Of a stretch of DNA of 64,000 nucleotides, positions 71-56,405 are shown piece after piece. This DNA is from Terriglobia bacterium (GTDB taxonomy: Bacteria > Acidobacteriota > Terriglobia > Terriglobales > Acidobacteriaceae). Positions within the stretch are counted from its first letter, which is position 1, and the number at the start of each line of letters is the position of its first letter. The stretch spans positions 62,001 through 126,000 of the forward strand of contig JAIQGK010000001.1 in the NCBI GenBank assembly GCA_020072645.1. Direction: 5' to 3'. A program made the position numbers and the translations under genes. The notes under the pieces are model-generated. The model was not told where the DNA came from and ran no database searches. It saw only the letters and a list, made by a program, of their open reading frames with translations.

Positions 71-2011
71 GTGGCCAAGCTGACATTTGTCGTGGGAAAA
101 GGCGGCGTAGGCAAGACGACCGTCTCCTGCGCGCTCGCGCTGCATCTGGCCGCGCGCCAACCCAGGCAATCGACGCTGCTCATGTCCACCGATCCCGCAC
201 ATTCGCTGGCCGACATGCTGGAAATTAAAGATAAAGCTGGGCCGCACCGACTTACCGGCATCAAGGGCAAAGTTTCCGTCTGGCAGATTGACAGTGACCG
301 CGAGTTCAAGAAGTTTCTTGAGGGCAACCGGGAAGGCATCCTCAACATTGTTGAGAATGGTACATTTTTCAATCGCGAAGAAATCGCGCCGCTGCTGGAT
401 ACCACGCTGCCCGGAATGTCAGAGGTGGCTGGCCTGCTTGCGCTGCGTGACATGCTGGAAAGCGGCGAGCATGATCACATTGTGGTTGATACGGCCCCGT
501 TCGGCCACACGTTGCGCCTCTTTGAGCTGCCAGGACATTTTCAGCGCTTCCTGAATTTTCTTGAGGTCGCCTCCAGCCGCGATGACCTGCTGGCGCAACG
601 CTTCGGCGGACGAACGTCCGGCCCGGCCCATGGCTTTCTGGAAAAGTGGCAGGCCACCGTCAGGCAGGTGAAAGAAGCTTTTAGTGCGGAGCAGGCAGAG
701 GTTCTGCTGGTCACATCGGCGGAAACCTTCTCTCTCAATGAAGCCGTGCGCTGCGTGGATGCGCTCCGGGAGTCGGCAGCAGAGATGCGTCTGGGCGGTA
801 TCGTCCTGAACCGCGTAGTCATGTCAGCAGGGAAGTGCCCACGCTGCCGCGCCCGCTCGCTTCAGGGCAAAAAGGCTGTCCAGTTCCTGAAGCAAAAATT
901 TCCGCGCGTGCCCAGGCTGATCGGCCCCGATCCGGGCAATCCTCTTCTTGGCCCGCGCCAGTTGCAGCGCTTTGGCGAGACGATCTTTGCTGGAGGTCAC
1001 GCCAACCTCGCCGCTCCGCCTCCAGGAACATCCAAAATCAAACTCAAGTTCGCAAAGACCAAATGGCCTGCCGCCAAAACTCGTCTCTCCTTCACTCTGG
1101 GCAAAGGCGGCGTGGGCAAGACAACGGTCACGGCCGCGCTGGCCTTCCATGAACGGTCGCTGGATAAAGATGTTCACGTCACTGTGTGCTCCACTGACCC
1201 TGCGCCGTCGCTCGATGACATTTTCCAGAAAGAAATCGGCGACCAGATGGTTTCTGTCCTTGGCGATGCCGGTCTTGCCGCCATGGAAATGGACGCGGTC
1301 TTTGAGTTTCGCCGCTGGGCGGCCCGCATCAAGCAGCAGCTTTCCGCCGGAACCAGCATGCAATCGGGCGGCCTGCATGTTGATCTCACTTTTGAAAAAG
1401 AAGTCTTCGCCGCGCTTATGGACGTGGTCCCGCCCGGCGTGGATGAAGTATTTGCCATCTTCCGCATCCTTGACCTGCTGGAAGCAAAGCACGGCAGCGT
1501 ATTCATTGATATGGCGCCCACAGGCCACGCGCTGGAATTGTTGCGCATGCCGGACCGCATTTTGCTGTGGTCGCGCCTTTTATTGAAAAGCCTGGCGGCG
1601 CACCGTACACTAGCCCTCGCGCAGGATGTTGCTGTGGAACTGGCCGGACTGGGGCAGCGAGTGCGGAAACTGCTGGAGCTCATGCGTGATCCCCGGCAGA
1701 GCCGCGCATGGGCGGTGATGTTGCCGGAGCCTGTGCCTGATCGGCAGACGCAACGCCTTCTGGCCGCGATCAAGGAAATTGGCGTTGCCATAGATTCTTT
1801 GTTCGTGAACCGGGTCCTGCTTGGGCCGGATTCCGGCTGTAAAACTTGCCGTCGCGCGCAGAACTGGCAGGCAGCAACATTGCAGTCATTGCAAAAGAAA
1901 TACGGCGGCCATCGTTTGTATCTGGTGCGGGATTTTCCCGCGGAAATTACGGGCGCGGCAAAGCTGAAGAAATTTACCGGCGAGTTATGGCAAATTCAAA
2001 CCGAAAAATAG
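71..2011 (+). CDS. Tandem ArsA-like (GET3/ArsA family) ATPase of the gas vesicle cluster
   Basis: This 646-residue protein has two ArsA-type halves. Each has a deviant Walker A, GKGGVGKTT, at about residues 9-17 and 344-352. Each also has a switch II motif, DTAPFGHTLRL near 140 and DMAPTGHALELL in the second half. Each half ends with a CxxC pair (CPRC at 256-259; CKTC near the C-terminus). The start is GTG at 71. Known ArsA proteins energise arsenite efflux, and Get3 relatives chaperone hydrophobic proteins. No arsR, arsB or arsC lies nearby. The 3' end overlaps the gvpF/L start, so the gene is translationally coupled to gas vesicle genes. A role in handling hydrophobic Gvp proteins is my inference. 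The family call is secure and the function is not. Confidence 0.85.
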   Translation: MAKLTFVVGKGGVGKTTVSCALALHLAARQPRQSTLLMSTDPAHSLADMLEIKDKAGPHRLTGIKGKVSVWQIDSDREFKKFLEGNREGILNIVENGTFFNREEIAPLLDTTLPGMSEVAGLLALRDMLESGEHDHIVVDTAPFGHTLRLFELPGHFQRFLNFLEVASSRDDLLAQRFGGRTSGPAHGFLEKWQATVRQVKEAFSAEQAEVLLVTSAETFSLNEAVRCVDALRESAAEMRLGGIVLNRVVMSAGKCPRCRARSLQGKKAVQFLKQKFPRVPRLIGPDPGNPLLGPRQLQRFGETIFAGGHANLAAPPPGTSKIKLKFAKTKWPAAKTRLSFTLGKGGVGKTTVTAALAFHERSLDKDVHVTVCSTDPAPSLDDIFQKEIGDQMVSVLGDAGLAAMEMDAVFEFRRWAARIKQQLSAGTSMQSGGLHVDLTFEKEVFAALMDVVPPGVDEVFAIFRILDLLEAKHGSVFIDMAPTGHALELLRMPDRILLWSRLLLKSLAAHRTLALAQDVAVELAGLGQRVRKLLELMRDPRQSRAWAVMLPEPVPDRQTQRLLAAIKEIGVAIDSLFVNRVLLGPDSGCKTCRRAQNWQAATLQSLQKKYGGHRLYLVRDFPAEITGAAKLKKFTGELWQIQTEK

Positions 2012-2757
2012 CGGCCAGCGGCGCACTCTATCTTTATGGGATTTCTGAAGCGCCTGCGTCTGCCGCCAGGAAACCTGCAAAACTCGGCAGCGTTGGCATT
2101 GACGGCTTGCATCCCGTACAGCCTCTGGCCTGCGGTGATTTTCTTTGTTGGGTGTGTGAGGTTGATCAGGCCAGCTTTGCCGATGCCGTTGAGCGCAACA
2201 TGGAAAATCTTGAATGGCTGGCGCTGCATGGCGTACGCCACCAGCAGGTAGTAGGCGAAGTGGCGGAGCAGATGACGATTGTTCCAGCCCGCTTTGGTAC
2301 CGTATTTTCTGGCGAGCCAGCGCTTCTCAAGGACGTACTGGGAAGAAAAGCCGCGCTCAAGAAAGTCTTTGCTCGCGTTTCCGGCGGCGACGAATGGGGT
2401 GTAAAGGTATTTGCCGAGCGGCAGGTTGCCGCGGTTCCCGTAACCGAAGCTCGCTCAGGCAAGGAGTATTTGCAGCAGAAAGCGGCACGGTTGAAGAAGC
2501 GTCCCGAGCGCAATGACCAGGAATTGCAGGAGCTGGCAACGGCGCTGGGCAAGATTGCCACGCATTCCGCGCCCAGCGGCAAGGTAAGTGGAGCGCAGCC
2601 CAACTTGCTCTGGCAGGCAACTTTTCTTGTTCCGCGCACCAAGCGCAAACAATGGGACCAGGCGCTGAAAAATTTTGTGGAGAGGTGGGATGGGCAGCGG
2701 CGCATCGAAGTAAATGGGCCATGGCCGCCGTACTCTTTTGTCTCTGATGCCAAATGA
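1987..2757 (+). CDS. gvpF: Gas vesicle protein GvpF/GvpL (copy 1)
   Basis: The product is a 256-residue GvpL/GvpF family protein. It starts LYLYGI and contains the FGTVF motif in the middle and GPWPPYSF at the C-terminus, all family hallmarks. GvpF/L proteins are minor gas vesicle components or assembly chaperones that bind GvpA. I chose ATG 1987, inside the end of the ArsA-like gene (25-nt overlap), because homology begins right after it; an upstream in-frame start at 1846 would add 47 residues that look like out-of-frame ArsA sequence. It overlaps the next gene by 11 nt. Three F/L paralogues in one cluster fits known gvp clusters, where F and L are diverged copies; F versus L is not decided here. 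Confidence 0.9.
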   Translation: MANSNRKIAASGALYLYGISEAPASAARKPAKLGSVGIDGLHPVQPLACGDFLCWVCEVDQASFADAVERNMENLEWLALHGVRHQQVVGEVAEQMTIVPARFGTVFSGEPALLKDVLGRKAALKKVFARVSGGDEWGVKVFAERQVAAVPVTEARSGKEYLQQKAARLKKRPERNDQELQELATALGKIATHSAPSGKVSGAQPNLLWQATFLVPRTKRKQWDQALKNFVERWDGQRRIEVNGPWPPYSFVSDAK

Positions 2758-2971
2758 TTTTGAAACTTTAGAAACGCTGGGCGGAGAAGATGAAGTTTCG
2801 CTTCTCGAAATCCTGGATCACGTGCTGAACTCCGGCGTCGTGATCCATGGATCGCTGGTGATCTCTCTGGCCGGGGTTGACCTGGTCTATCTCGGCCTCA
2901 ATGTTGTGCTGACGTCGGTTGAAACGGCGCTGAACAATCTGCAAATAGAGGAGAAGCGGAGGCAGAAGTGA
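2747..2971 (+). CDS. Gas vesicle protein of the GvpA/GvpJ family (GvpS/J-like)
   Basis: This 74-residue protein has a GvpA/J core: SLLEILDHVLNSGVVIHG, then the beta-strand segments LVISLAGVDLVYLGL and VVLTSVETAL. Such GvpA paralogues are minor shell proteins thought to act at the conical caps or in nucleation. The ATG at 2747 overlaps the preceding gvpF/L stop by 11 nt; an upstream in-frame start at 2714 would only add residues read from the preceding gene. The stop overlaps the next GTG by 4 nt. It lacks the C-terminal extension seen in the 4259 paralogue. Family membership is clear; the exact letter (J, M or S) is uncertain. Confidence 0.85.
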   Translation: MPNDFETLETLGGEDEVSLLEILDHVLNSGVVIHGSLVISLAGVDLVYLGLNVVLTSVETALNNLQIEEKRRQK

Positions 2972-3651
2972 GCCGCGTGCTGGTTTACTGCGGCTTTCGC
3001 CATGCGCCGGAACTCGCTTTGCCCGCGCTGGGCGTCAACGCCGCGCCGGTCCAGCTGGCGGCTTCGGATGACCTTGGCCTGCTCTGGTCAGAAGTAGAGT
3101 GGCCGTTTGATCCAGAGCGAATGCAGAAAAGCGCGGTTGAGTTTCATGAGGTCGTCCATAAGGTGTTTAAGCAGACTGCAGTAATTCCGTTCCGTCTCCT
3201 GTCCGTCTTTGATGACCAGCAGGCGTTCACCGCCTTTGCCGCCGAAAATCGCCAGCGCTTTCTGCAAGACTTAAGCCGTCTCAAGGACTTTGTGCAGATG
3301 GAGTGCGTCATCTATCCCGCGCCTTCACAGGTTCAAATCGACCGCAGTTCCGGCAAAGCCTATCTTCAGCAGAAAGCCGTGGCCTTGCGATCTTCAGAAG
3401 GATTTGCGCAGGCCACGCGGGATGCTCTGGCTCATTTGAGCAGGGACGTTCGCGTCCGCGAAGGCAAGAACGGGACGCGCATCTTTGCGCTGGTGGAGCG
3501 AGGGCGCGAGAATGATTTTCGCCGGGCGGTGACTGCCGTGCCCATCCCAACACACCTGTCGCGGCGCATGAGTGGCCCCTGGCCGGCCGCTGAGTTCCTG
3601 AGCGAACAGGTCAAAATGCCTCAGATAAACGGGACTGCCGGAGCGCAATGA
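2968..3651 (+). CDS. gvpL: Gas vesicle protein GvpF/GvpL (copy 2)
   Basis: This 227-residue GvpL/F family protein is more divergent than copies 1 and 3. Conserved parts are VIPFRLLSVF (the FGTVF-equivalent region), the segment SSGKAYLQQKAVAL also present in copy 1, and a C-terminal MSGPWPAAEFL matching the family GPWPPY motif. It starts at GTG 2968, overlapping the previous stop by 4 nt (gtga), and ends overlapping gvpK by 4 nt. This indicates tight translational coupling in one operon. Its likely role is as an assembly accessory protein interacting with GvpA. Confidence 0.85.
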   Translation: MSRVLVYCGFRHAPELALPALGVNAAPVQLAASDDLGLLWSEVEWPFDPERMQKSAVEFHEVVHKVFKQTAVIPFRLLSVFDDQQAFTAFAAENRQRFLQDLSRLKDFVQMECVIYPAPSQVQIDRSSGKAYLQQKAVALRSSEGFAQATRDALAHLSRDVRVREGKNGTRIFALVERGRENDFRRAVTAVPIPTHLSRRMSGPWPAAEFLSEQVKMPQINGTAGAQ

Positions 3652-4007
3652 CAGACATTCGCAAGATCACGCCAGAGGAAATTGCCGCTGCGGTCTCTGA
3701 GATGAACCGCGAGCTAAAGGCCGTGGGCGAGGGCGCAATCGACCGGATTGATTGTTCTCCGGAAAACATTGAGCAAGGGCTTGCGCGGCTTGTGCTCAGT
3801 TTAATTGAGCTGTTGCGGCGTCTGCTGGAGCGCCAGGCTATCCGTCGCATGGAAGGTGGATCGTTAGGCGATACAAAGGTGGAAGAGATGGGGCAGGCGC
3901 TGATGCGCCTGGAAGCCAAGGTCAACGAGCTTGCCGCCGCCTTTGGACTTAAGCCGGAAGACCTGAACCTTGAGCTGGGCCCTCTGGGAAATCTTCTGGA
4001 CAAATAA
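3648..4007 (+). CDS. gvpK: Gas vesicle protein GvpK
   Basis: This 119-residue protein matches the GvpK family along its length: IDCSPENIEQGLARLVLSLI, then IELLRRLLERQAIRRME and a C-terminal LGPLGNLL. GvpK is an essential accessory protein for gas vesicle formation in several bacteria. The start overlaps the preceding gvpF/L stop by 4 nt (atga). It is the last gene of the first sub-operon; a 251-nt gap with a clear promoter follows. Confidence 0.93.
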   Translation: MTDIRKITPEEIAAAVSEMNRELKAVGEGAIDRIDCSPENIEQGLARLVLSLIELLRRLLERQAIRRMEGGSLGDTKVEEMGQALMRLEAKVNELAAAFGLKPEDLNLELGPLGNLLDK

Positions 4008-4161
4008 AGCGCCGCGGGCTCAAACCCATCAATCAGACGCATAAAATGCGGGTTTTGCGTATGCAGGCAACCAATTTCGGGAATGTGAGCATCTCAAAAT
4101 CACGCGCTGGCTCCTCCCCCTTCCGGATTGTTCGTAGGCCAGTTAAAAAAGCTATCAAAGG

Positions 4162-4191
4162 TTGACAGTTTGTAGTGAGGCTGGTTAGGAT
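4162..4191 (+). promoter_or_regulatory. Predicted sigma70-type promoter for gvpJ-gvpA
   Basis: TTGACA at 4162-4167, an 18-bp spacer and TAGGAT at 4186-4191. This is a near-consensus housekeeping promoter in the 251-bp gap between gvpK and gvpJ. The predicted transcript start near 4198 gives a roughly 60-nt leader before the gvpJ ATG. It would let the structural genes be expressed separately from the upstream accessory genes. Confidence 0.6.
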
Positions 4192-4258
4192 GCGGTGACA
4201 CGAGTCGCGTGGATTCTCCCAGTCCCCGGCGATCTCTTCTGTTTTTTCCTGAGATATT

Positions 4259-4579
4259 ATGCAAAGAGTTCCTACGGTTTCCGGAACAGCAAACCTGCTG
4301 GACATCCTTGATCGAGTACTCGATAAAGGGCTTGTGATTGCGGGTGACATCCGCGTTTCGCTTGCCAACGTGGAGTTGCTCACGATCCGTATCCGGCTGC
4401 TTGTTTGTTCTGTCGATAAAGCTGAGGCCATAGGTCTCAATTGGTGGAAGTACGATCCTAATCTCACGGCTCCTGTGCCTGAGAACGTTGTGCGGAGGAC
4501 CCAGTTACCCGGTGCGCCACCGGCGTCCCAGACGCCGAACCGGAAGAGGCCCGCTGTCCGCGCAAAAAGAGTGAAGTGA
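4259..4579 (+). CDS. gvpJ: Gas vesicle protein GvpJ (GvpA paralogue with basic tail)
   Basis: This 106-residue protein has the GvpA-type core [20 protein letters not shown], then [20 protein letters not shown]. An extended C-terminus follows, with NWWKYDPN and a Pro/Arg/Lys-rich tail. The LNWW extension after the core is typical of GvpJ-like minor shell proteins. It is the first gene after the predicted promoter and lies 31 nt upstream of gvpA. It differs from GvpA at the residues after the first helix (AGDIRVSL rather than DAWVRISL). Confidence 0.9.
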
Positions 4580-4610
4580 GCCGATCGATCTTAATGAAGG
4601 AGGCCCTCGA

Positions 4611-4901
4611 ATGGCCGTTGAAAGAGTTTCCGGCGGATCAAGTTTAATCGATGTTCTGGATCGAGTGCTCGACAAAGGTATCGTCATTGATGCCTGGGTT
4701 CGCATTTCGCTGGTCGGCATTGACTTGATCACGGTAGAAGCCCGCGTCGTCGTTGCGTCCATTGATACCTACCTCAAGTACGCTGACGCTGTGGGTCTCA
4801 CGGGTCTGGTTTCCCGTCCCACGTTGACTGAAGGCGGCGCTGAAGGTGAAGAAGGAGAACTGGGTGAAGTCAGTCCTCGTACACCCCGCCGGCGGCGGTA
4901 A
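4611..4901 (+). CDS. gvpA: Gas vesicle structural protein GvpA
   Basis: This is the main shell protein candidate. The core [40 protein letters not shown] and [14 protein letters not shown] is nearly canonical GvpA. GvpA forms the amyloid-like ribbed wall of the hollow gas vesicle. The protein is 96 residues, longer than the usual ~70, because of an acidic then Arg-rich C-terminal tail (GEEGELGE to RTPRRRR). A strong ribosome site, aaggagg, precedes the ATG, which suits a highly expressed structural protein. The histidine kinase gene follows after 21 nt. Confidence 0.95.
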
Positions 4902-4922
4902 GGCCTGGACTCGGGGACACGC

Positions 4923-7040
4923 ATGGCTACGGCCGAAATCCGGATGCAACCGGCGCGCATGAATGGACGGCGTACAGCCCAACCTCGCCGTCCTGCCGTT
5001 CTTCGTCTGTTGCAGGCGGAACGCTCGGAGGAGATCTTCCCGCTTTTGCTGGAAGAGATCATCGCTCTCGGCAATCCGCGCGCGCTTGTTGTTGACGTGA
5101 ATCTCGACAGTGGTGAAATCACGCCGGCTGCGGCGCTGAAATGGCCTCGTGCGCAGATGGAAAAATTTACCAGCGCGCTCTGGATGCAGGACCATCCTCT
5201 TACCAGCGTTCTGCACTCCGTGCGGCCGGAGGTGCTGGAAAAAAGCAACCTGCACAACCGCCCCATTTACGTCCATCCCATTCTTTATTCCAACCGCAAT
5301 CTTTGCTGGGAAGCGGACCGTATTCGCGCCTCAAGCTGTCTGGCGGTGCAGAACTCGCGCCGGGAAAAACGTGTCCGCCTGGAAGACCAGGTGTGTTCCA
5401 CCTGTGAGATGCGCGCCTATGCCGCGGTAGTGGTGGTGGAACTGCCCAGGAACCACTCTGCCCAGGCCATTGCCGAGCTAGGCGAGTTGATTGACCTGGC
5501 CAACCGCTATCTTTCGCGCCTGTTCAAGGTTGAGCATTATTACAACCGCATGCGTGATATGGAAATCACCATCGCGCAAATGGGCACTGTAATGCAGAGC
5601 ATGGCTGACCCGGTCATTCTCACTGACACGCAGCATCGCGTCATCATGCAGAACAAGGCCGCAGAGCGCTTCTTCCGAGTGCCGGAAGAGATGACAGAAG
5701 GTTTGGTGCGCGCGGTTGAGTTCAACAACCTGCTTTTCTCCGCGGCGCTCTCTTCCATGCTGGTTTCCGGCAGCGATTCCCATCGTGATCTCACGCTGGT
5801 GGACGCCATTGAGGGCGAAGAAATGCTGTTTGAAGCCGTTTCTGCGCCCACTTTCGGCCCGGACGGCATTCAGCTCGGCACTGTAACCGTGATGCGTGAC
5901 GTGACCGATCTCCGTCGCGCTGACCAGGAATTGCGCCTGAATTATGAACGGCTCAGCGAAGCTGAAGAAGTTGTGCGGCAGGACCGTGACCGCCTGAACC
6001 TGATTATTGAAAACGTCGGCGACCCAATTGTGGTGTGCGATGGCAAAGCCAAGATCGTGCTGGTGGACCCGCTGGCCCAGGAGCTTTTCGGCACAGAGGT
6101 GGACGTGGTGCGCGACACCGTCCAGTTTCAGAACCAGACCAAGCTCACGGCTTTTATTGACGCGTTTACCTCTTCTTTCGCCGATCGCGAAACGGCGCCA
6201 TTGCGTTTGTACAATCCCACGCTGCGGCAGGAAATCGATTACGATGCCCGCTCCGGCAAGATCTATGGTGAGCGCGGTCAGGTTGCATATACCGTCACAG
6301 TCCTGCGCGACCTCACGGCCTTGCGCAAAGTGGAGCAGCTCAAGGTAGAGCGGCGCATGCTGGAAATTGAAAAGTTTGCCGCCACCGGCCGGCTGGCCGC
6401 CACCATCGCCCATGAGGTCAACAACCCCATGGAGGCCATCAAGAACGCGATCTACCTTTTGGCCAGCGCCATTCCAGATAATGCCGCGCCCGTTTACAAC
6501 ATTTTGAAGTCGGAAACTGAGCGCGTTGCGCGCATCGTGCGGCAGATGCTTGGTCTCTACCGCAACACGGAACAGGTCAAGCCGGTCAACGTCAATACCA
6601 TTATCGAAGATACACTGCTGCTGCTGAATCGCCAGCTTCAGCGCGCCAATGTGGAAGTCCAGACGCAACTGGACGTGCTTCCGGACGCCGTGATCGCCGC
6701 CGACCAGATTCGCCAGGTGCTATCCAACCTGGTCATTAACGCCCGTGACGCCATGCCGAACGGAGGCAAGCTGCGCATACGCAGCCGCCATATTCCTGGC
6801 TATGACGACCTGCATGGCTGGGTGCGCATCTTAATCGCTGATACCGGCTCGGGAATTCCCCCGGAAATGATTCGCACCATCTTTGAGCCGTTTGTTACCA
6901 CCAAGGGCGAACGCGGCACCGGGCTGGGCCTCTGGATCGTGAAAGGAATCATCCAGAACCATGCAGGCAAGCTTTCCGTCAGGAGCCGTTTGGGGCGCGG
7001 CACGACTTTCAAGATTGATTTGCCAGTCGTAAAATTGTGA
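4923..7040 (+). CDS. PAS-domain sensor histidine kinase in the gas vesicle cluster
   Basis: The 705-residue kinase appears cytoplasmic; no membrane segments are seen. Residues about 25-170 form a GAF-like N-terminal region carrying Cys128, Cys139 and CSTC at 158-161. Two PAS-like domains follow (about 215-330 and 355-470). A HisKA domain has H-box AHEVNNPMEAI with His497. The HATPase region has N-box NLVINARDAMPNGG, then DTGSGIP and GTGLGLWIVKG. The layout resembles NtrB-type kinases. It starts 21 nt after gvpA and overlaps the response regulator by 4 nt, so it probably controls gas vesicle production or reports its trigger. The cysteine set could bind a metal, Fe-S cluster or redox signal; that is inference. 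Confidence 0.88.
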   Translation: MATAEIRMQPARMNGRRTAQPRRPAVLRLLQAERSEEIFPLLLEEIIALGNPRALVVDVNLDSGEITPAAALKWPRAQMEKFTSALWMQDHPLTSVLHSVRPEVLEKSNLHNRPIYVHPILYSNRNLCWEADRIRASSCLAVQNSRREKRVRLEDQVCSTCEMRAYAAVVVVELPRNHSAQAIAELGELIDLANRYLSRLFKVEHYYNRMRDMEITIAQMGTVMQSMADPVILTDTQHRVIMQNKAAERFFRVPEEMTEGLVRAVEFNNLLFSAALSSMLVSGSDSHRDLTLVDAIEGEEMLFEAVSAPTFGPDGIQLGTVTVMRDVTDLRRADQELRLNYERLSEAEEVVRQDRDRLNLIIENVGDPIVVCDGKAKIVLVDPLAQELFGTEVDVVRDTVQFQNQTKLTAFIDAFTSSFADRETAPLRLYNPTLRQEIDYDARSGKIYGERGQVAYTVTVLRDLTALRKVEQLKVERRMLEIEKFAATGRLAATIAHEVNNPMEAIKNAIYLLASAIPDNAAPVYNILKSETERVARIVRQMLGLYRNTEQVKPVNVNTIIEDTLLLLNRQLQRANVEVQTQLDVLPDAVIAADQIRQVLSNLVINARDAMPNGGKLRIRSRHIPGYDDLHGWVRILIADTGSGIPPEMIRTIFEPFVTTKGERGTGLGLWIVKGIIQNHAGKLSVRSRLGRGTTFKIDLPVVKL

Positions 7041-7477
7041 GTGCCGATCAAAAATACCGCGTGCTGGTGGTGGACGACGAAGCGGCCGTCCTGCTCACCT
7101 ATCGTCTTATTCTTGAGCGGCAGGGCTATGAAGTTGTGGCGTGCGGCACCTCCAAGGCCGCGATTGAGGCCATGGAGAGGCAGCAGTTTGATGTGGTTCT
7201 GTGCGATTATTCACTGGAAGAGCAACATACAGGGTTTGAAGTAATCTCTGCGGCAAGAAAAATTAACGCCGCCATTCCCGCGGCCCTGCTTACGGGGTAT
7301 GCCACCAAGGAAACCGCGGATGAAGCAGCCAGCCGTGGCATTGGCGTAATGTTCAAGCCGATTGAGATTGAAGAATTTTTGGCGACAACCTCCAACATGT
7401 TGAGGAGAGACAATGAGTCCAAGCAAGAAGGCAGGCAAGAAGACAACCGCGGTCCGCAAAGCGACCATCAAGGCTGA
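7037..7477 (+). CDS. Single-domain response regulator (REC)
   Basis: This 146-residue CheY-like receiver has acidic residues D13/D14 in VLVVDDEAAV, phospho-acceptor Asp57 in VVLCDYSL, the switch Thr in ALLTGYA and the conserved Lys in MFKPIE. No DNA-binding output domain follows. It is the probable partner of the upstream kinase: its GTG start overlaps the kinase stop (gtga). The last 20 or so residues are polar, and their reading frame overlaps the start of the third gvpF/L by 65 nt. The output route is unknown. Confidence 0.88.
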   Translation: MSADQKYRVLVVDDEAAVLLTYRLILERQGYEVVACGTSKAAIEAMERQQFDVVLCDYSLEEQHTGFEVISAARKINAAIPAALLTGYATKETADEAASRGIGVMFKPIEIEEFLATTSNMLRRDNESKQEGRQEDNRGPQSDHQG

Positions 7478-8312
7478 ACCGGCGACAGCGGTCCTGGATC
7501 TTGTGCCTCCGCCGGCGAGCCTGAAGATGGAGCCGCGAAGCGGACAACAGCAGGAAGGCCGCTACGTTTATGGCGTGATTGAATCGCGCGCCCCTGTCGG
7601 CTTTGGCCGCAGCAGCATCGGCGGCGTGAATGAAGACGTGTATACGGTGCATTATGGCGATATCGCTGCCGTCGTGAGCCGCACGCCTGTTTTCATCTTT
7701 GATCCGACGCGTGACAACGCGCTGGCCCATGAGCACGTCATCGAATCCGTGATGAAGAATTACACCATCATTCCCATGAGCTTTGGCACGGTGTTCCGCA
7801 CAGACGACGATATACGTGAAGTGCTGAAGAGCATTTATTCGTCGCTGAAAGACGTTCTCAAGCAGATGACCGGCAAGCTTGAGTTCGGCCTGAAAGTTAC
7901 CTGGGACCGCGACCGCATTATCGAGGAACTTCAGCGTGAGCATGATGAAATCCATCGCTTCCACCAGGAATTAACGCGCAAGCACCTGCAATCCACGTAC
8001 TTCGCGCGCATGCAGCTGGGCCGCATGATCGATAAGGCGCTGGCCGAGCTCGCTGCAAACTACGTCCGTGAAATTTATGACGGACTGCGCGCCGTCTGCG
8101 TGGCTTCACGCGACAACAAACCAATTGGCGACAAGATGATCATGAACGCCGCGTTCCTGATCCAGAAGGCCCGTGAGGCGGAGTTTGACGCCGCTGTAAA
8201 CAAAGTCGCGCAGAAATTTGGCGACCGCCTGAATTTCAAGTACACCGGCCCGTGGCCGCCTTACAACTTTGTGAATATCCGCCTGAAATTGGAGCGCGGC
8301 GGACAGGGGTAA
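7413..8312 (+). CDS. gvpF: Gas vesicle protein GvpF/GvpL (copy 3) with Lys/Ala-rich N-terminal extension
   Basis: This 299-residue GvpF/L protein is the most canonical of the three copies: YVYGVIESRAP near residue 51, IPMSFGTVFRTDDDI in the middle and YTGPWPPYNFVNIRL at the C-terminus. The first 45 or so residues are a Lys/Ala/Pro-rich extension not usual for the family. I keep ATG 7413 because a ribosome site (gaggagag) stands just before it; ATG 7527 is the alternative that would remove the extension. The first 65 nt overlap the response-regulator gene in another frame. Confidence 0.9.
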   Translation: MSPSKKAGKKTTAVRKATIKAEPATAVLDLVPPPASLKMEPRSGQQQEGRYVYGVIESRAPVGFGRSSIGGVNEDVYTVHYGDIAAVVSRTPVFIFDPTRDNALAHEHVIESVMKNYTIIPMSFGTVFRTDDDIREVLKSIYSSLKDVLKQMTGKLEFGLKVTWDRDRIIEELQREHDEIHRFHQELTRKHLQSTYFARMQLGRMIDKALAELAANYVREIYDGLRAVCVASRDNKPIGDKMIMNAAFLIQKAREAEFDAAVNKVAQKFGDRLNFKYTGPWPPYNFVNIRLKLERGGQG

Positions 8313-8325
8313 GCTTTTGTTTTTG

Positions 8326-8440
8326 GATCCCGAGCGTAGCGAGGGAACTCTATAGCCATAAAGGCTCATACGGATCGGTTCATATTTCCAAAATGTATTG
8401 ATAACGATAGGGACCCCTCGCTTCGCTCGGGGTCGCAGAA
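8326..8440. repeat. Palindromic intergenic repeat pair (family B) between gvpF/L and gvpG
   Basis: The left arm tcccgagcgtagcgaggga (about 8328-8346) and right arm cccctcgcttcgctcgggg (about 8415-8433) are inverted copies enclosing about 70 bp. The same arm sequence recurs in gaps near 31120, 34635, 38060, 53170, 55665 and 63260. In mRNA it would fold into a long stem inside the gvp operon. Confidence 0.7.
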
Positions 8441-8455
8441 AAGAAACGGCACACT

Positions 8456-8797
8456 ATGCTCTTAATCGACGATCTGCTCTTCGCGCCCTTTTCCGGCTGG
8501 AACTTCATCATGCGCACCTTGCTGAAGGTAGCGGAAGAGCAGTGGACGGACGACGCTCCTCTCAAAGAGCAACTCCTGCACCTGCAGGTCGAGTTGGAAG
8601 AAGGCTCCATCACAGAAGAGCAATATCTTGAAGCCGAAGCGGCCATCCTGCGTGAAATCCGTGAGGTCCAGCGCCGCAAGATCGAGCTAGCCGGTGGCGA
8701 TCCTGACCAGTTTGAAGGCGGTATTTCCGGCTCTGCCGTCCAGGAAGGTTCTGGGGCTTCAATTACCTGGGACCCCAACGAGAGCGGCGAAGAATAA
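8456..8797 (+). CDS. gvpG: Gas vesicle protein GvpG
   Basis: This 113-residue protein begins MLLIDDLLFAPFSGW, the GvpG family opening in which a hydrophobic N-terminus is followed by charged helices (VELEEGSITEEQYLEAEAAI). GvpG is a small accessory protein that interacts with GvpF/L and is needed for assembly in many clusters. It is longer than typical GvpG (about 80-90 residues) because of a Gly/Ser/Asp-rich C-terminal tail. It is the last gvp gene and is separated from gvpF/L copy 3 by a palindromic repeat. Confidence 0.88.
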   Translation: MLLIDDLLFAPFSGWNFIMRTLLKVAEEQWTDDAPLKEQLLHLQVELEEGSITEEQYLEAEAAILREIREVQRRKIELAGGDPDQFEGGISGSAVQEGSGASITWDPNESGEE

Positions 8798-8890
8798 TCT
8801 TAGCGAGCTCCCGCGGAAAATGTCTGCTTTGAGGCACGTCACGCTTGTCTTGCATCCCGCAATCATCTTCAAATCGCGCCCAATAAAAAT

Positions 8891-13762: not shown

Positions 13763-13960
13763 CCGCGAATTTCGCGAATAAACACGAATCAAAAAGAATT
13801 ATGTATATTCTCGTTTATTCGCGGCTGAATCATTTGATCCGCATTCATCCGCGAAAATCCATAGTAAGGTTTTTACCTTTCAAACCTGATGTTGATTCGC
13901 GTATTTTCGCGTTGATTCGCGGCTAAATTTCTTGATCTGCGTCCATCTGCGAAATCTGCG
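13763..13960. repeat. Palindromic repeats, family A (two units)
   Basis: The first unit (13763-13828) has arms agccgcgaa...aataaac and gtttattcgcggct. A second set of ttcgcg/gattcgcggcta strings covers about 13886-13960. The same family occurs at 28810-28866 and 34681-34756. It lies between the convergent mqnE and purB and could act as a transcription barrier. No gene is seen in the gap. Confidence 0.7.
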
Positions 13961-34820: not shown

Positions 34821-35546
34821 CTAGTGGAAGTAGTGCCGCAACATCACCAGAAGTCCCACTCCCAGAAAAACGACCAGGGCAGTGCGAATTCCGGGGTCTT
34901 TGTTCACTTCAGGGATCAGGTCAGAAGCCGCAACGTAAAAGGTAACGCCGGCGGCAAGAGGTAACCCCGCAGTGAGGGTGCGGCTAAAAATGGTCATGGT
35001 GAGCACGCCCGCGACTGTTGCAAGACCTAAAATTCCAGAAGCCGCCCAGGCCACGGCCCTGCTGCGTCCGCTGGCAAGCATGATCGAGGAAGCGGTGAAT
35101 CCTTCCGGGACTTTATGCAGGATGACGGCCAGAAAGATGATCCAGCCCAGCCAGCCGGAGATCAAAAAGCCGGATGCGATGGCGATACCGTCAAAAAACG
35201 TGTGGATCACTAATCCGAAAAGCACTGAATAGCTGCGCCGCCGATGGGCAAACTCTTCCGCGTGCGTTTCTTCTCCGAAATGGAAATGGCCGGTAACGGT
35301 ATGTTCAAAGAAGTGGACCAGAAAATATCCCACCAGCATCAGCAGCGGCGCGTTTGCTCCGGCGATGGACATACTTTCCGGCAGCATTTCCAGAAATACC
35401 GTGCCCAGCATGAAACCCGCGCCCAGCGCCACGAAATAGCGCAGATAGCGGCGTTCCCAGTCTTTTTGGACGATGACGGCACCGCCCAGGCCATTGGCCA
35501 GAGCAGCAGTCAGGCCCAGCAGGATGCTAGTAGTGATTGGGTTCAT
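34821..35546 (-). CDS. ZIP-family metal transporter
   Basis: The 241-residue protein has eight predicted hydrophobic segments and the ZIP metal-site motifs HTFFDGIAIASGF (segment 4) and HKVPEGF (segment 5). A His/Glu-rich loop, HFHFGEETHAEE, lies between segments 3 and 4 and may bind metal. Such transporters bring zinc, iron or other divalent metals into the cytoplasm. No metal regulator is adjacent. Specificity is not predictable from sequence. Confidence 0.9.
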   Translation of the reverse strand: MNPITTSILLGLTAALANGLGGAVIVQKDWERRYLRYFVALGAGFMLGTVFLEMLPESMSIAGANAPLLMLVGYFLVHFFEHTVTGHFHFGEETHAEEFAHRRRSYSVLFGLVIHTFFDGIAIASGFLISGWLGWIIFLAVILHKVPEGFTASSIMLASGRSRAVAWAASGILGLATVAGVLTMTIFSRTLTAGLPLAAGVTFYVAASDLIPEVNKDPGIRTALVVFLGVGLLVMLRHYFH

Positions 35547-35711
35547 GGATGCAATTCACCAGAATAGCAGAGTCGCACCGAGCCTCGTGGTTAGGAAATC
35601 CCTGGCGGCTGCCTTGACAGGTGTTGCCGCGAAAATTGTGTCCTGTTCCAAAACGGGCCAGCGGGAAAACCGCTTTGGCATCTGGGTAACATTACCGCAA
35701 TTCTTGAGAGT

Positions 35712-35717
35712 TATAAT
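35712..35717 (+). promoter_or_regulatory. Consensus -10 box before the small double-glycine peptide gene
   Basis: TATAAT, a perfect -10 hexamer, about 54 nt before the peptide ATG. No good -35 is found at 16-18 bp; TTGGCA at 35675 is too far. It suggests a dedicated transcript. Confidence 0.45.
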
Positions 35718-35770
35718 TTCGCCAGCCCGGGTCATTTGGAGCGGTTGAATCTTTTCGAGAGAGGACCGTT

Positions 35771-35932
35771 ATGACCGAACAGAGTAATAGAGTTCTTGCC
35801 CGCACGGGGGCGCGCATACTGACGCAAGAAGAAATGGCTCAAGTTGCAGGTGGCTTTTCAACTCCGATCATCACCACCGATCTTGTCACCAATTTCGGAA
35901 CAGACTTTTCCGTTGACCAGATAGCAAATTAG
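35771..35932 (+). CDS. Small peptide with double-glycine-type leader (candidate secreted peptide precursor)
   Basis: A 53-residue ORF too short for usual gene finding. The N-terminal half is MTEQSNRVLARTGARILTQEEMAQVAGG, then a 25-residue core FSTPIITTDLVTNFGTDFSVDQIAN without Cys. The LTxEEMxxVxGG pattern matches the leaders of double-glycine peptides (class II bacteriocins, some RiPPs and signalling peptides), which are cut after GG by C39-peptidase ABC exporters. A purine-rich ribosome site (gagagagga) precedes the ATG, a TATAAT lies upstream and a hairpin terminator follows, so it looks like a complete monocistronic gene. No C39 exporter, modification enzyme or immunity gene is visible in the window. 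Reading frame quality is good; function is inferred. Confidence 0.65.
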   Translation: MTEQSNRVLARTGARILTQEEMAQVAGGFSTPIITTDLVTNFGTDFSVDQIAN

Positions 35933-35954
35933 TAATACCGCGATTGAACGCCCT

Positions 35955-35979
35955 ATCCCCGACCCTGGAGGCCGGGGAT
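35955..35979 (+). terminator. Terminator of the small peptide gene
   Basis: Stem ATCCCCG/CGGGGAT (35955-35961 and 35973-35979), with extra inner pairing possible, followed by ttctatt. It begins 23 nt after the peptide stop. Confidence 0.6.
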
Positions 35980-35989
35980 TTCTATTGAT

Positions 35990-36100
35990 TCTGTCGCTTT
36001 CGCTCCACACCGCTAGCGAGTTTCAAATGTGGGAAGTTCGCTTATGCTCCAGGTGAAGGGCGGCTCGACTTGCACGGGTCTCGCCGCCATTGCAACGGCA
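35990..36100. repeat. Interspersed repeat, family C
   Basis: A copy of the element beginning tgtcgctttcgctccacaccgct and ending with a ggcggctcgacttg...ctcgccgcc segment. Related copies occur at 37226-37425 and 56183-56405 and, inverted, at 61995-62140. It lies between the peptide terminator and the end of the ychF-like gene. No gene is seen. Confidence 0.55.
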
Positions 36101-36135
36101 GTTTCAGAGTCGGCTTGAATAGATACAGGGGTGGC

Positions 36136-37221
36136 CTATCCGCTGTGGCGGATATGCATCACGTCGCCGTCCTGAACGATGTACTCTTTGCCTTCCAGCC
36201 GCAGCTGGCCTTTGGCGCGAGCATTGGCTTCAGAGCCCGCTTCCAGCAAGGTGTCCCAGTGAATGGTTTCCGCGCGGATGAAATGCTTTTCCAGATCGGA
36301 ATGGATTGCGCCCGCGGCGTTCTGCGCGCGCGATCCCCGCGGCACGGTCCAGGCGCGGCACTCATCTTCACCAATGGTGAAGAATGAAATCACGCCCAGC
36401 AATTCGTAGGTCTTGCGGATCAGGCGTGTCAGGCCGCTCTCTTTGAGTCCGTAACTGGAAAGAAATTCCTGCGCTTCCTCGTCGCTCATGTCTGCGAGTT
36501 CGGCTTCGACTTTGCCGCAGATAGCCGTAGCGCCAGCGTTTTTGCGCGACGAGATTTCCTGTAGCCCGAATTTACTGACAGCTTTTTCCAGATCGTCGCC
36601 CAGGGTCTGCGATTCATTGACGTTCAGCACGTAGAGAATCGGTTTCTGGCTCAGGAACATGAAGCCGCGGATGCGCTTCTCGTCGTCGGCGGTGATTTCC
36701 ATTTCGCGCAGGGGCAGCTCTTTTTCCAGATGCGCCTTGGCGCGCAGGATCAAGTCATTTTCCCGCTCAAGCTCCGCGTTCTTCATCTTCTTTAAATCTT
36801 TTTCCAGGCGCTCCAGACGTTTTTCCACCTGGCCCAGGTCGCTTACGATTAGGTCAAAGTCCACGGTCTTGGCGTCGCGCAGCGGGTTGATGTCACCTAC
36901 GTGAGGGATGGAAGGATCGTCAAAGGCGCGCAGAACGTGGGCCAGCGCGTCCACGGTGCGCAGGGCTGTGAGGAAAGCCGTTTCCTTCAATGCTTCCTGG
37001 CCGATGGCGGCCACGTCAGCGTATTCCACCACCGCATGCGTCAGCTTCTTGGGGTTGTATTGGGCCGCAAGACGGTCGAGACGGTCGTCGGGGACTTTGG
37101 CGATCCCCAAATGCGCTTCACGGGGATTCGAGTGGCCGCGGGTTGATACGTCCACTTTGGTCAGAATTTTAAACAGCGATGTCTTGCCCACCTGCGGCAG
37201 GCCGATGATACCTGTTTTCAT
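36136..37221 (-). CDS. YchF-related GTPase/ATPase
   Basis: This 361-residue protein of the YchF/Obg group has a G1-type P-loop GLPQVGKTSLF, a G4-like segment NVNES (YchF has NxxE rather than NKxD, which favours ATP), a central coiled coil (VEKRLERLEKDLKKMKNAELE) and a C-terminal TGS-like domain (YIVQDGDVMHIRHSG). YchF binds ribosomes and is linked to stress and redox control. The P-loop differs from the standard GLPNVGKS, so it may be a diverged subfamily. It is flanked by family C repeats. Confidence 0.85.
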   Translation of the reverse strand: MKTGIIGLPQVGKTSLFKILTKVDVSTRGHSNPREAHLGIAKVPDDRLDRLAAQYNPKKLTHAVVEYADVAAIGQEALKETAFLTALRTVDALAHVLRAFDDPSIPHVGDINPLRDAKTVDFDLIVSDLGQVEKRLERLEKDLKKMKNAELERENDLILRAKAHLEKELPLREMEITADDEKRIRGFMFLSQKPILYVLNVNESQTLGDDLEKAVSKFGLQEISSRKNAGATAICGKVEAELADMSDEEAQEFLSSYGLKESGLTRLIRKTYELLGVISFFTIGEDECRAWTVPRGSRAQNAAGAIHSDLEKHFIRAETIHWDTLLEAGSEANARAKGQLRLEGKEYIVQDGDVMHIRHSG

Positions 37222-37225
37222 TTAT

Positions 37226-37425
37226 TTGTCGCTTCGCTCCAAACCGCTATGCGGATTCGTGTTCTATAAGCTTTGTTTTGCGCCTGTTGCAGCGGGCTCA
37301 GCGCGTGGTCGGCTTCGCCCTCAATCTTGTCGCTTCGCTCCAAACCGCCAATGTGACTCGTGTTGGTAAACTCTGTTCTGCGCTTGTTGCAGCGGGCTCG
37401 GCGCGTGGTCGGCCTCGCCCTTATA
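37226..37425. repeat. Two tandem copies of family C repeat
   Basis: Two direct copies, about 37226-37320 and 37325-37422, each begin ttgtcgcttcgctccaaaccgc and end gcagcgggctc(a/g)gcgcgtggtcgg(c/t)(t/c)tcgccct. Strong similarity between the copies points to recent duplication. The rest of the gap to 37555 shows nothing else. Confidence 0.75.
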
Positions 37426-56179: not shown

Positions 56180-56405
56180 TTTTTTTGTCGCTGCGCTCCA
56201 CACCGCTTGAGTGCTTCGATTCCATCAAAGCCGTTTATGCTCCTGATGCGCGCGACTCGGCGCGCAAGCCGGCCGAGCCGCCGTAAATCGCGTCTTCTTT
56301 TTTGTCGCTGCGCTCCAAACCGCTTGAGTAACTCGCTTAGAGATAAGGATCATCTGCTCCTGAGGCAGGCGACTCGGCACGCAAGTCGGCCGAGCCGATT
56401 CAATC
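56180..56405. repeat. Two copies of family C repeat
   Basis: Direct copies at about 56183-56290 and 56298-56405. Each starts tttttgtcgctgcgctcca and contains ctcctga(t/g)g...cgactcggc(g/a)cgcaag(c/t)cggccgagccg. They fill most of the 350-bp gap; the remainder up to the DUF4097 gene shows no other element. Confidence 0.75.

What the first reader, a model, noticed from the sequence alone, without database searches (positions are those of the whole stretch)
35705..35985. Stand-alone gene for a double-glycine leader peptide
The 53-codon ORF has the LTxEEMxxVxGG leader pattern of exported small peptides and a 25-residue Thr-rich core without Cys. It has its own -10 box, ribosome site and terminator. 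It would be missed by standard gene calling, and no processing or export gene lies near, so it may belong to a dispersed peptide system.
Basis: partly seen in the sequence, partly recalled or inferred. Interest (0 to 1): 0.75.

Follow-up and report, generated by a model that had tools for sequence, protein, structure and literature searches.

The report
Stray precursor of a cyclised peptide
A soil acidobacterium keeps a large family of small peptide genes whose products are probably tied into rings by enzymes encoded far away, and this window holds one lone member inserted between two unrelated genes, much like the scattered peptide libraries known from ocean cyanobacteria.

Summary
The 53-codon ORF (35771-35932 +) is real: a leader model built without it finds it at 46.1 bits, against at most 14.5 in 20 shuffled windows. 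It is one of 34 paralogs in this genome with leader NRVLxRxGARxLTxxE..VxGG. Twenty-six sit in four arrays, each beside an ATP-grasp ligase of the graspetide (microviridin-like) clan; eight, this one included, stand away from any ligase. The largest array adjoins a C39-peptidase ABC exporter. The window core has the pattern [ST]x3T[GN]..Dx3D, seen in 8 of 34 cores: the seven of the C3 array and this one. In five same-genus genomes the ychF-ZIP junction is closed; here a 563-bp segment (against the nearest relative) carrying the gene lies in it. Best reading: an orphan graspetide precursor, ring-closed in trans by a distant ligase (most likely C3's), then cut at GG and exported by the C2 exporter. 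New variant of a known kind: a graspetide counterpart of the scattered prochlorosins. Modification, export and activity are inferred, not shown.

The parts
35575..36137 (.). 563-bp segment carrying the gene, absent between ychF and the ZIP gene in the nearest relative (G006), where window bases 35574 and 36138 are adjacent
   Evidence: G004, G007, G002 and G008 also have the two genes almost touching
35712..35717 (+). TATAAT, possible -10 box; no matching -35 found
   Evidence: by eye; one search found 0 promoter-like pairs
35759..35765 (+). GAGAGGA ribosome-binding site, 5 bases before ATG
   Evidence: by eye; 33 of 34 paralogs have such a site
35771..35932 (+). graspetide-type precursor gene, 53 codons plus TAG
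35771..35854 (+). leader MTEQSNRVLARTGARILTQEEMAQVAGG, with the family motif NRVLxRxGARxLTxxE..VxGG and a GG cut site
35855..35929 (+). core FSTPIITTDLVTNFGTDFSVDQIAN: Ser/Thr as possible donors, the Dx3D pair (residues 45 and 49) as possible acceptors
35955..35979 (+). terminator-like hairpin followed by a T-rich tail
34821..35546 (-). neighbour, ZIP metal transporter; next to ychF in relatives
36136..37221 (-). neighbour, ychF GTPase

Best explanation
The ORF encodes an orphan precursor of a graspetide-type RiPP. Proposed working: (1) the peptide is made from its own short transcript; (2) its leader, shared by 34 paralogs, docks onto one of four ATP-grasp ligases encoded elsewhere, most likely the one of the C3 array, which uses ATP to join Thr/Ser hydroxyls of the core to the two Asp of the Dx3D pair (side-chain ester rings); (3) the C39 domain of the ABC exporter on contig C2 cuts behind GG and the ringed peptide of up to 25 residues leaves the cell. 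The gene reached its place as a single-gene segment inserted between ychF and the ZIP gene in this lineage. Shown by sequence: the ORF, the paralog family, the ligases and exporter with their families, the core pattern, the closed junction in relatives. Inferred: expression, docking, ring formation, which ligase, cleavage, export and any activity. The most likely role is a secreted effector against, or signal to, other microbes; that last step is a guess.
For: Leader homology: matches down to E 1.8e-6 with the peptide alone; 34 ORFs; model without this leader. Array-ligase linkage: 26 precursors within 5 kb of a ligase in this genome; a leader match in 13 of 13 acidobacterial ligase loci, L054-L064, L105, L129. 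Ligase identity: TIGR04187 4.5e-47, MvdD 4e-38; CdnC 7mgv 4e-27, MdnC 5ig9 5e-23; model of the C3 ligase's relative in L061, pLDDT 85.4; the 30 best PDB chains are all graspetide ligases, RimK follows. Co-occurrence: precursors in 7 of 200 genomes of the family, ligase in 12 of 200, all 7 among the 12. Selection: dN/dS 0.11 over 14 ortholog pairs (leader 0.10, core 0.12), 0.31 over 5 orphan pairs. Core: [ST]x3T[GN]x2-8Dx3D in 8 of 34 cores, seven of the C3 array plus this one. Exporter: and (a C39 ABC exporter beside the array in 9 of 13 relatives' loci).
Against: No ligase or exporter lies on the 484-kb contig. No ortholog of this very gene was found in 40 relatives, and against its paralogs the synonymous changes are saturated, so selection on this copy could not be measured; it may be young and idle. 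The core fits the C3 pattern imperfectly: shorter loop before the Asp pair and an IAN tail; the loop range in the pattern was widened to admit it, so its shuffle frequency of 0.0057 is post hoc. By leader its best match over a short span is another orphan (C3:121522, 63% over 27 residues), not the C3 array. No -35 box. Only 22 of 34 leaders end in GG (by eye). Co-occurrence counts are not independent: six of the seven genomes are one genus. In the phylum sample three weak precursor matches (E 0.002-0.009) lie in genomes without the ligase at E 1e-20. The peptide model is uninformative (pLDDT 59.4).
Confidence: 0.75

Rival explanations
1. A dead or idle copy: a precursor gene that landed between ychF and the ZIP gene by chance and is neither expressed nor modified, on its way to decay.
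For: Absent at this place in five relatives and without ortholog. A decayed relic of a precursor lies beside another single member (L018:5301-5480), so such copies do decay.
Against: The frame, the leader residues, ribosome site, Asp pair and terminator-like hairpin are all intact. Other single members persist between species under constraint, dN/dS 0.31.
Confidence: 0.15
2. An unmodified exported double-glycine peptide (bacteriocin- or pheromone-like), cut and exported by the C39 transporter without any ring closure.
For: Double-glycine leader and a C39 exporter in the genome. The only NCBIfam match is a weak class IIb bacteriocin leader (E 0.056).
Against: The same leader sits beside a graspetide-type ligase in each of the four arrays and in 13 of 13 acidobacterial ligase loci; cores keep Thr/Ser before an Asp pair.
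Confidence: 0.07
3. A chance ORF that only looks like a leader peptide.
For: It is short, and the promoter scan found nothing.
Against: 46.1 bits with its own leader left out of the model, against at most 14.5 in 20 shuffled windows; 33 relatives in the genome.
Confidence: 0.01

Closest known systems
Graspetides (omega-ester-containing peptides; microviridin, plesiocin, chryseoviridin)
   Same: Leader plus core with Ser/Thr donors and Asp acceptors; ATP-grasp ligases matching CdnC, MdnB, MdnC, PsnB and PruB by sequence and fold; GG cut site and C39 ABC exporter as often seen in graspetide loci (PMC8939145, passages and section 5 read).
   Different: This precursor has no ligase near it. The leader lacks both PFFARFL and the Phhx(1,2)h motif described in PMC8939145. 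The ligases fall below NCBIfam cut-offs for MvdC, MvdD and SAV_5884.
Gra-7, Legionella pneumophila graspetide called group 8 (PMC9576775, section 11 read)
   Same: Ligases of other Legionella species are about 30% identical to the acidobacterial ones, and the ORFs before several carry a similar leader RVLAYxLAKExSxEEL..GG with Asp pairs. Gra-7 precursors were found dehydrated three times, and precursor A was cut by a C39 protease domain.
   Different: Different leader wording and core; in Legionella loci seen here the precursor stands beside the ligase. That the loci and Gra-7 are one family was not tested.
Prochlorosins / synechococsins (ProcM, SyncM lanthipeptides)
   Same: Many precursors with a kept leader and varied cores; some scattered as single genes away from the enzyme and believed to be modified in trans (PMC10783134, passages read).
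   Different: The enzyme there is a lanthipeptide synthetase acting on Cys and Ser/Thr; here ATP-grasp ligases, four of them, and the window core has no Cys.
Bacteroides graspetide loci with many cores per ligase (PMC8939145, abstract)
   Same: Several different precursors predicted to share one ligase.
   Different: There they lie in the same locus; here eight stand away from any ligase.

Membership tests
graspetide (broad sense) | ATP-grasp ligase of the MvdC/MvdD/PsnB clan for the precursor | tested here: met
   Four in the genome (fold), beside 26 paralogs; not beside this one
graspetide (broad sense) | Leader shared with precursors that neighbour such a ligase | tested here: met
graspetide (broad sense) | Core with conserved Ser/Thr/Lys donors and Asp/Glu acceptors | tested here: met
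   loop length and tail differ from the C3 array
graspetide (broad sense) | Side-chain ester or amide rings in the product | not testable with these tools
   needs mass spectrometry
microviridin (MvdC/MvdD type) | Ligase above the curated MvdC or MvdD cut-off | tested here: not met
   at most 131.2 bits against 475 (MvdD), at most 110.7 against 425 (MvdC)
microviridin (MvdC/MvdD type) | PFFARFL leader motif | tested here: not met
   leader read by eye; motif as given in PMC8939145, section 5
C39 (PCAT) exporter substrate | Double-glycine cut site and a C39 ABC exporter in the genome | tested here: met
C39 (PCAT) exporter substrate | Actual cleavage behind GG and export | not testable with these tools
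   needs a protease assay
graspetide group 8 (Gra-7 type) | Published group 8 core motif and ligase clade | not tested
   Defining papers not held; only about 30% ligase identity to Legionella and leader likeness seen

The most novel reading that the evidence does not exclude
This genus runs a scattered graspetide library: four ligases with overlapping substrate range and one C39 exporter serve more than 30 precursors, and the library grows by single-gene segments that land in unrelated neighbourhoods and are served in trans. The window gene is a fresh, lineage-specific addition with a core of its own, so a new ringed peptide arises by moving one short gene.
Probability: 0.55. Interest if true: 0.7.

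Novelty: new variant of a known kind. Interest (0 to 1): 0.55.

Why it matters
Searches that look for precursors beside the modifying enzyme would not see orphan graspetide genes like this one. If trans-modification is real, these ligases choose by leader and tolerate very different cores, which would make them useful for making ringed peptide libraries, and the genus offers a natural record of how such a library grows: arrays with and without exporter, single copies shared between species, and a copy with closed junctions in five relatives.

Tried and rejected
Chance ORF: rejected by the model with its own leader left out. Pfam gave no family and NCBIfam one weak match (E 0.056, class IIb bacteriocin leader) for the peptide. 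The C39 domain nearest on the contig (C1:329561) was considered as partner; it belongs to a locus with a lantibiotic dehydratase and an unlike leader and was set aside. Two of the 36 matches (C23:14611, C30:15184) were dropped as unrelated frames, leaving 34. Two weak ATP-grasp matches (C3:628130, with an in-frame stop, and C12:285433) were not counted as ligases of this system. dN/dS of the window gene against seven paralogs was useless, synonymous sites saturated. Ends of the inserted segment: no direct repeats at all and three short inverted repeat pairs in 35540-36150, no sign of a transposase; how it moved is unknown. Structure of the peptide: pLDDT 59.4, uninformative. Upstream stretches of the eight single members were printed and show no common element that I could see by eye; no motif finder was run. 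Literature: nine searches showed no description of these acidobacterial precursors; the library lacks most subscription papers, and supplements were not read. One review says a few of the group 13 graspetide clusters are from Acidobacteria (PMC13001092, passage). The paper on the genus Ca. Angelobacter and its gene clusters mentions one shared ribosomal peptide family, with no detail in the passage seen (PMC9723581).

Full report
What is there. The window is bases 62001-126000 of contig C1 (484,190 bases) of a genome of 6.4 Mb in 42 contigs, 99% complete. The ORF at 35771-35932 (+) encodes MTEQSNRVLARTGARILTQEEMAQVAGG-FSTPIITTDLVTNFGTDFSVDQIAN. It lies between a ZIP transporter gene and ychF, both on the minus strand. 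It has a TATAAT 54 bases before the ATG, a ribosome site and a terminator-like hairpin, but no -35 box was found.

It is one of a large family. Searching the genome with the peptide gave 36 matches; two were dropped as unrelated frames, 34 remain. All 34 ORFs carry the leader NRVLxRxGARxLTxxE..VxGG in some form, and 33 of 34 have a ribosome site by a simple pattern. With the window leader left out of the model it still scores 46.1 bits, E 1.9e-13. Fourteen lie in an array on C2, seven on C3, three on C19, two on C10; the other eight stand alone: C1 (window), C3:121.5k, C3:212.1k, C5, C6, C7, C19:62.7k and C29. One search counted 26 within 5 kb of a ligase and 7 further off; the eighth, on C5, was not among the matches (33 of its candidates were scored for this genome) but is, and one search shows no ligase match on C5.

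What makes the rings. Beside each array is an ORF of about 365 aa. All four match graspetide ligases: NCBIfam TIGR04187 at 3e-42 or better, MvdD at 2e-34 or better, all below the curated cut-offs. The C2 one matches CdnC (7mgv, 4e-27) and MdnC (5ig9, 5e-23) in the PDB. A model of the relative in L061 (85% identical to the C3 ligase) has pLDDT 85.4, and the 30 best PDB chains by fold are all graspetide ligases, with RimK next. The four are the only strong ligase matches in the genome; two weak ones were not counted.

What cuts and exports. C2 also has a 716-aa protein with C39 peptidase, membrane and ATPase domains just before the precursor array; its Cys, His and Asp are in place by eye. A 212-aa protein before it is only weakly HlyD-like (E 0.029). 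In relatives a C39 exporter sits beside the ligase in 9 of 13 acidobacterial loci (L054-L064, L105, L129), a relative of the 212-aa protein in 6 of 13; one further locus, L062, matched only over an ABC part and was not counted. The C3, C10 and C19 loci of this genome gave no exporter match.

Related places. A scan of 84,980 species with the ligase alignment gave 79 loci: 13 acidobacterial at 35-97% identity, and 66 others, many of Legionella at about 30%. The leader model (cut at 12 bits) hit in 13 of 13 acidobacterial loci and in 21 of the 66 others by my count, weakly. Over 47 peptides of both kinds the two Asp that align with residues 45 and 49 of the window peptide are each kept in 90% or more. 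In the ligase tree the C3 ligase pairs with L061 (100/100), and 7 of the 8 ORFs beside L061's ligase have Dx3D by eye; the eighth is cut short.

Which ligase. The pattern [ST]x3T[GN]x2-8Dx3D is in 8 of 34 cores: all seven of the C3 array and the window one; it turns up in 0.57% of shuffles of the window core. The pattern came from the C3 cores and its loop range was widened to admit the window core, so this is support, not proof. By DNA the one coding match of the segment among the own-genome loci searched is the leader of L013:8021-8176, a C3 member (39 bases, 79%). Against this, by peptide the leader's best short match is an orphan, C3:121522 (63% over 27 residues).

Where the gene came from. 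The DNA around it was searched in 9 genomes of the genus, this one included. In G006, 91-95% identical, window bases 35574 and 36138 are adjacent; in G004, G007, G002 and G008 the two genes are also almost touching (12, 42, 42 and about 92 bases between aligned ends). G001 has 336 other bases there without a precursor; G003 aligned at ychF only; G005 did not match. So five of eight relatives show the closed junction. Insertion in this lineage is the simplest reading; a clean loss in several lineages is not excluded. No repeat marks the ends.

Distribution and selection. In 200 genomes of the family, precursors were found in 7 (E 0.01) and the ligase in 12 (E 1e-10); all seven are among the twelve (3.5e-10 if genomes were independent, which they are not: six of the seven are one genus). 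In 396 of the phylum, 6 matched the precursor model: three with the ligase (G000, G007, G150) and three weak, partial ones without it at E 1e-20. Away-from-ligase members appear also in G001 (2 of 9), G004 (2 of 7) and G006 (3 of 26, fragments counted), none in G007, G008, G150; these are draft assemblies. Orthologs between this genome and G006 have dN/dS 0.11 over 14 array pairs; five orphan pairs from three genes give 0.31. The window gene has no ortholog found, so this could not be done for it.

How it compares. Graspetide surveys define the class by ATP-grasp ligases and note GG motifs and C39 exporters (PMC8939145, passages and section 5; its main text does not hold the word-start 'acidobacter'). 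A Legionella graspetide, Gra-7, was shown dehydrated three times, and precursor A was cut by a C39 protease domain (PMC9576775, section 11); it is the nearest worked example I found, by kinship of host and leader, not by a direct test. Scattered precursors served by one enzyme are known from prochlorosins (PMC10783134, passages). I found no account of such scatter for graspetides in nine searches, which cover open-licence papers only. The genus is probably Ca. Angelobacter: precursors of same-genus genome G001 are letter-identical to those of a record so named (L056).

Verdict. It is most likely an orphan graspetide precursor acting in trans with distant enzymes. The family and the enzymes are shown by sequence; the chemistry, export and role are not.

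Noticed in passing
L021 (own genome C1:322000-337000), 354-8848: Another RiPP-like locus: a lantibiotic dehydratase (904 aa, Pfam 4.6e-22), short ORFs with a different leader (..EILEAVLGGIGDEDGISNSCS..), an ABC transporter and a 508-aa protein with a C39 domain near its N-terminus.
   Followed up: partly
L018:5301-5480: Decayed remnant of a precursor beside the single precursor on C6.
   Followed up: no
L014:13445-13600 and 13783-13938: Two precursors on C19 whose cores differ by one residue, probably a recent duplication.
   Followed up: no
L065-L117, several Legionella and other gammaproteobacterial loci: ORFs before related ligases carry a leader RVLAYxLAKExSxEEL..GG and cores with repeated Dx3D, a likely distant branch of the same precursor family.
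   Followed up: partly
window 35989-36016: A stretch of about 28 bases behind the terminator recurs imperfectly elsewhere in the window (37216-37249, 56183-56207) and in relatives near ychF; perhaps a short dispersed repeat.
   Followed up: partly
L030 (own genome C3:628130-628750): A weak ATP-grasp-like match with one in-frame TAG.
   Followed up: no
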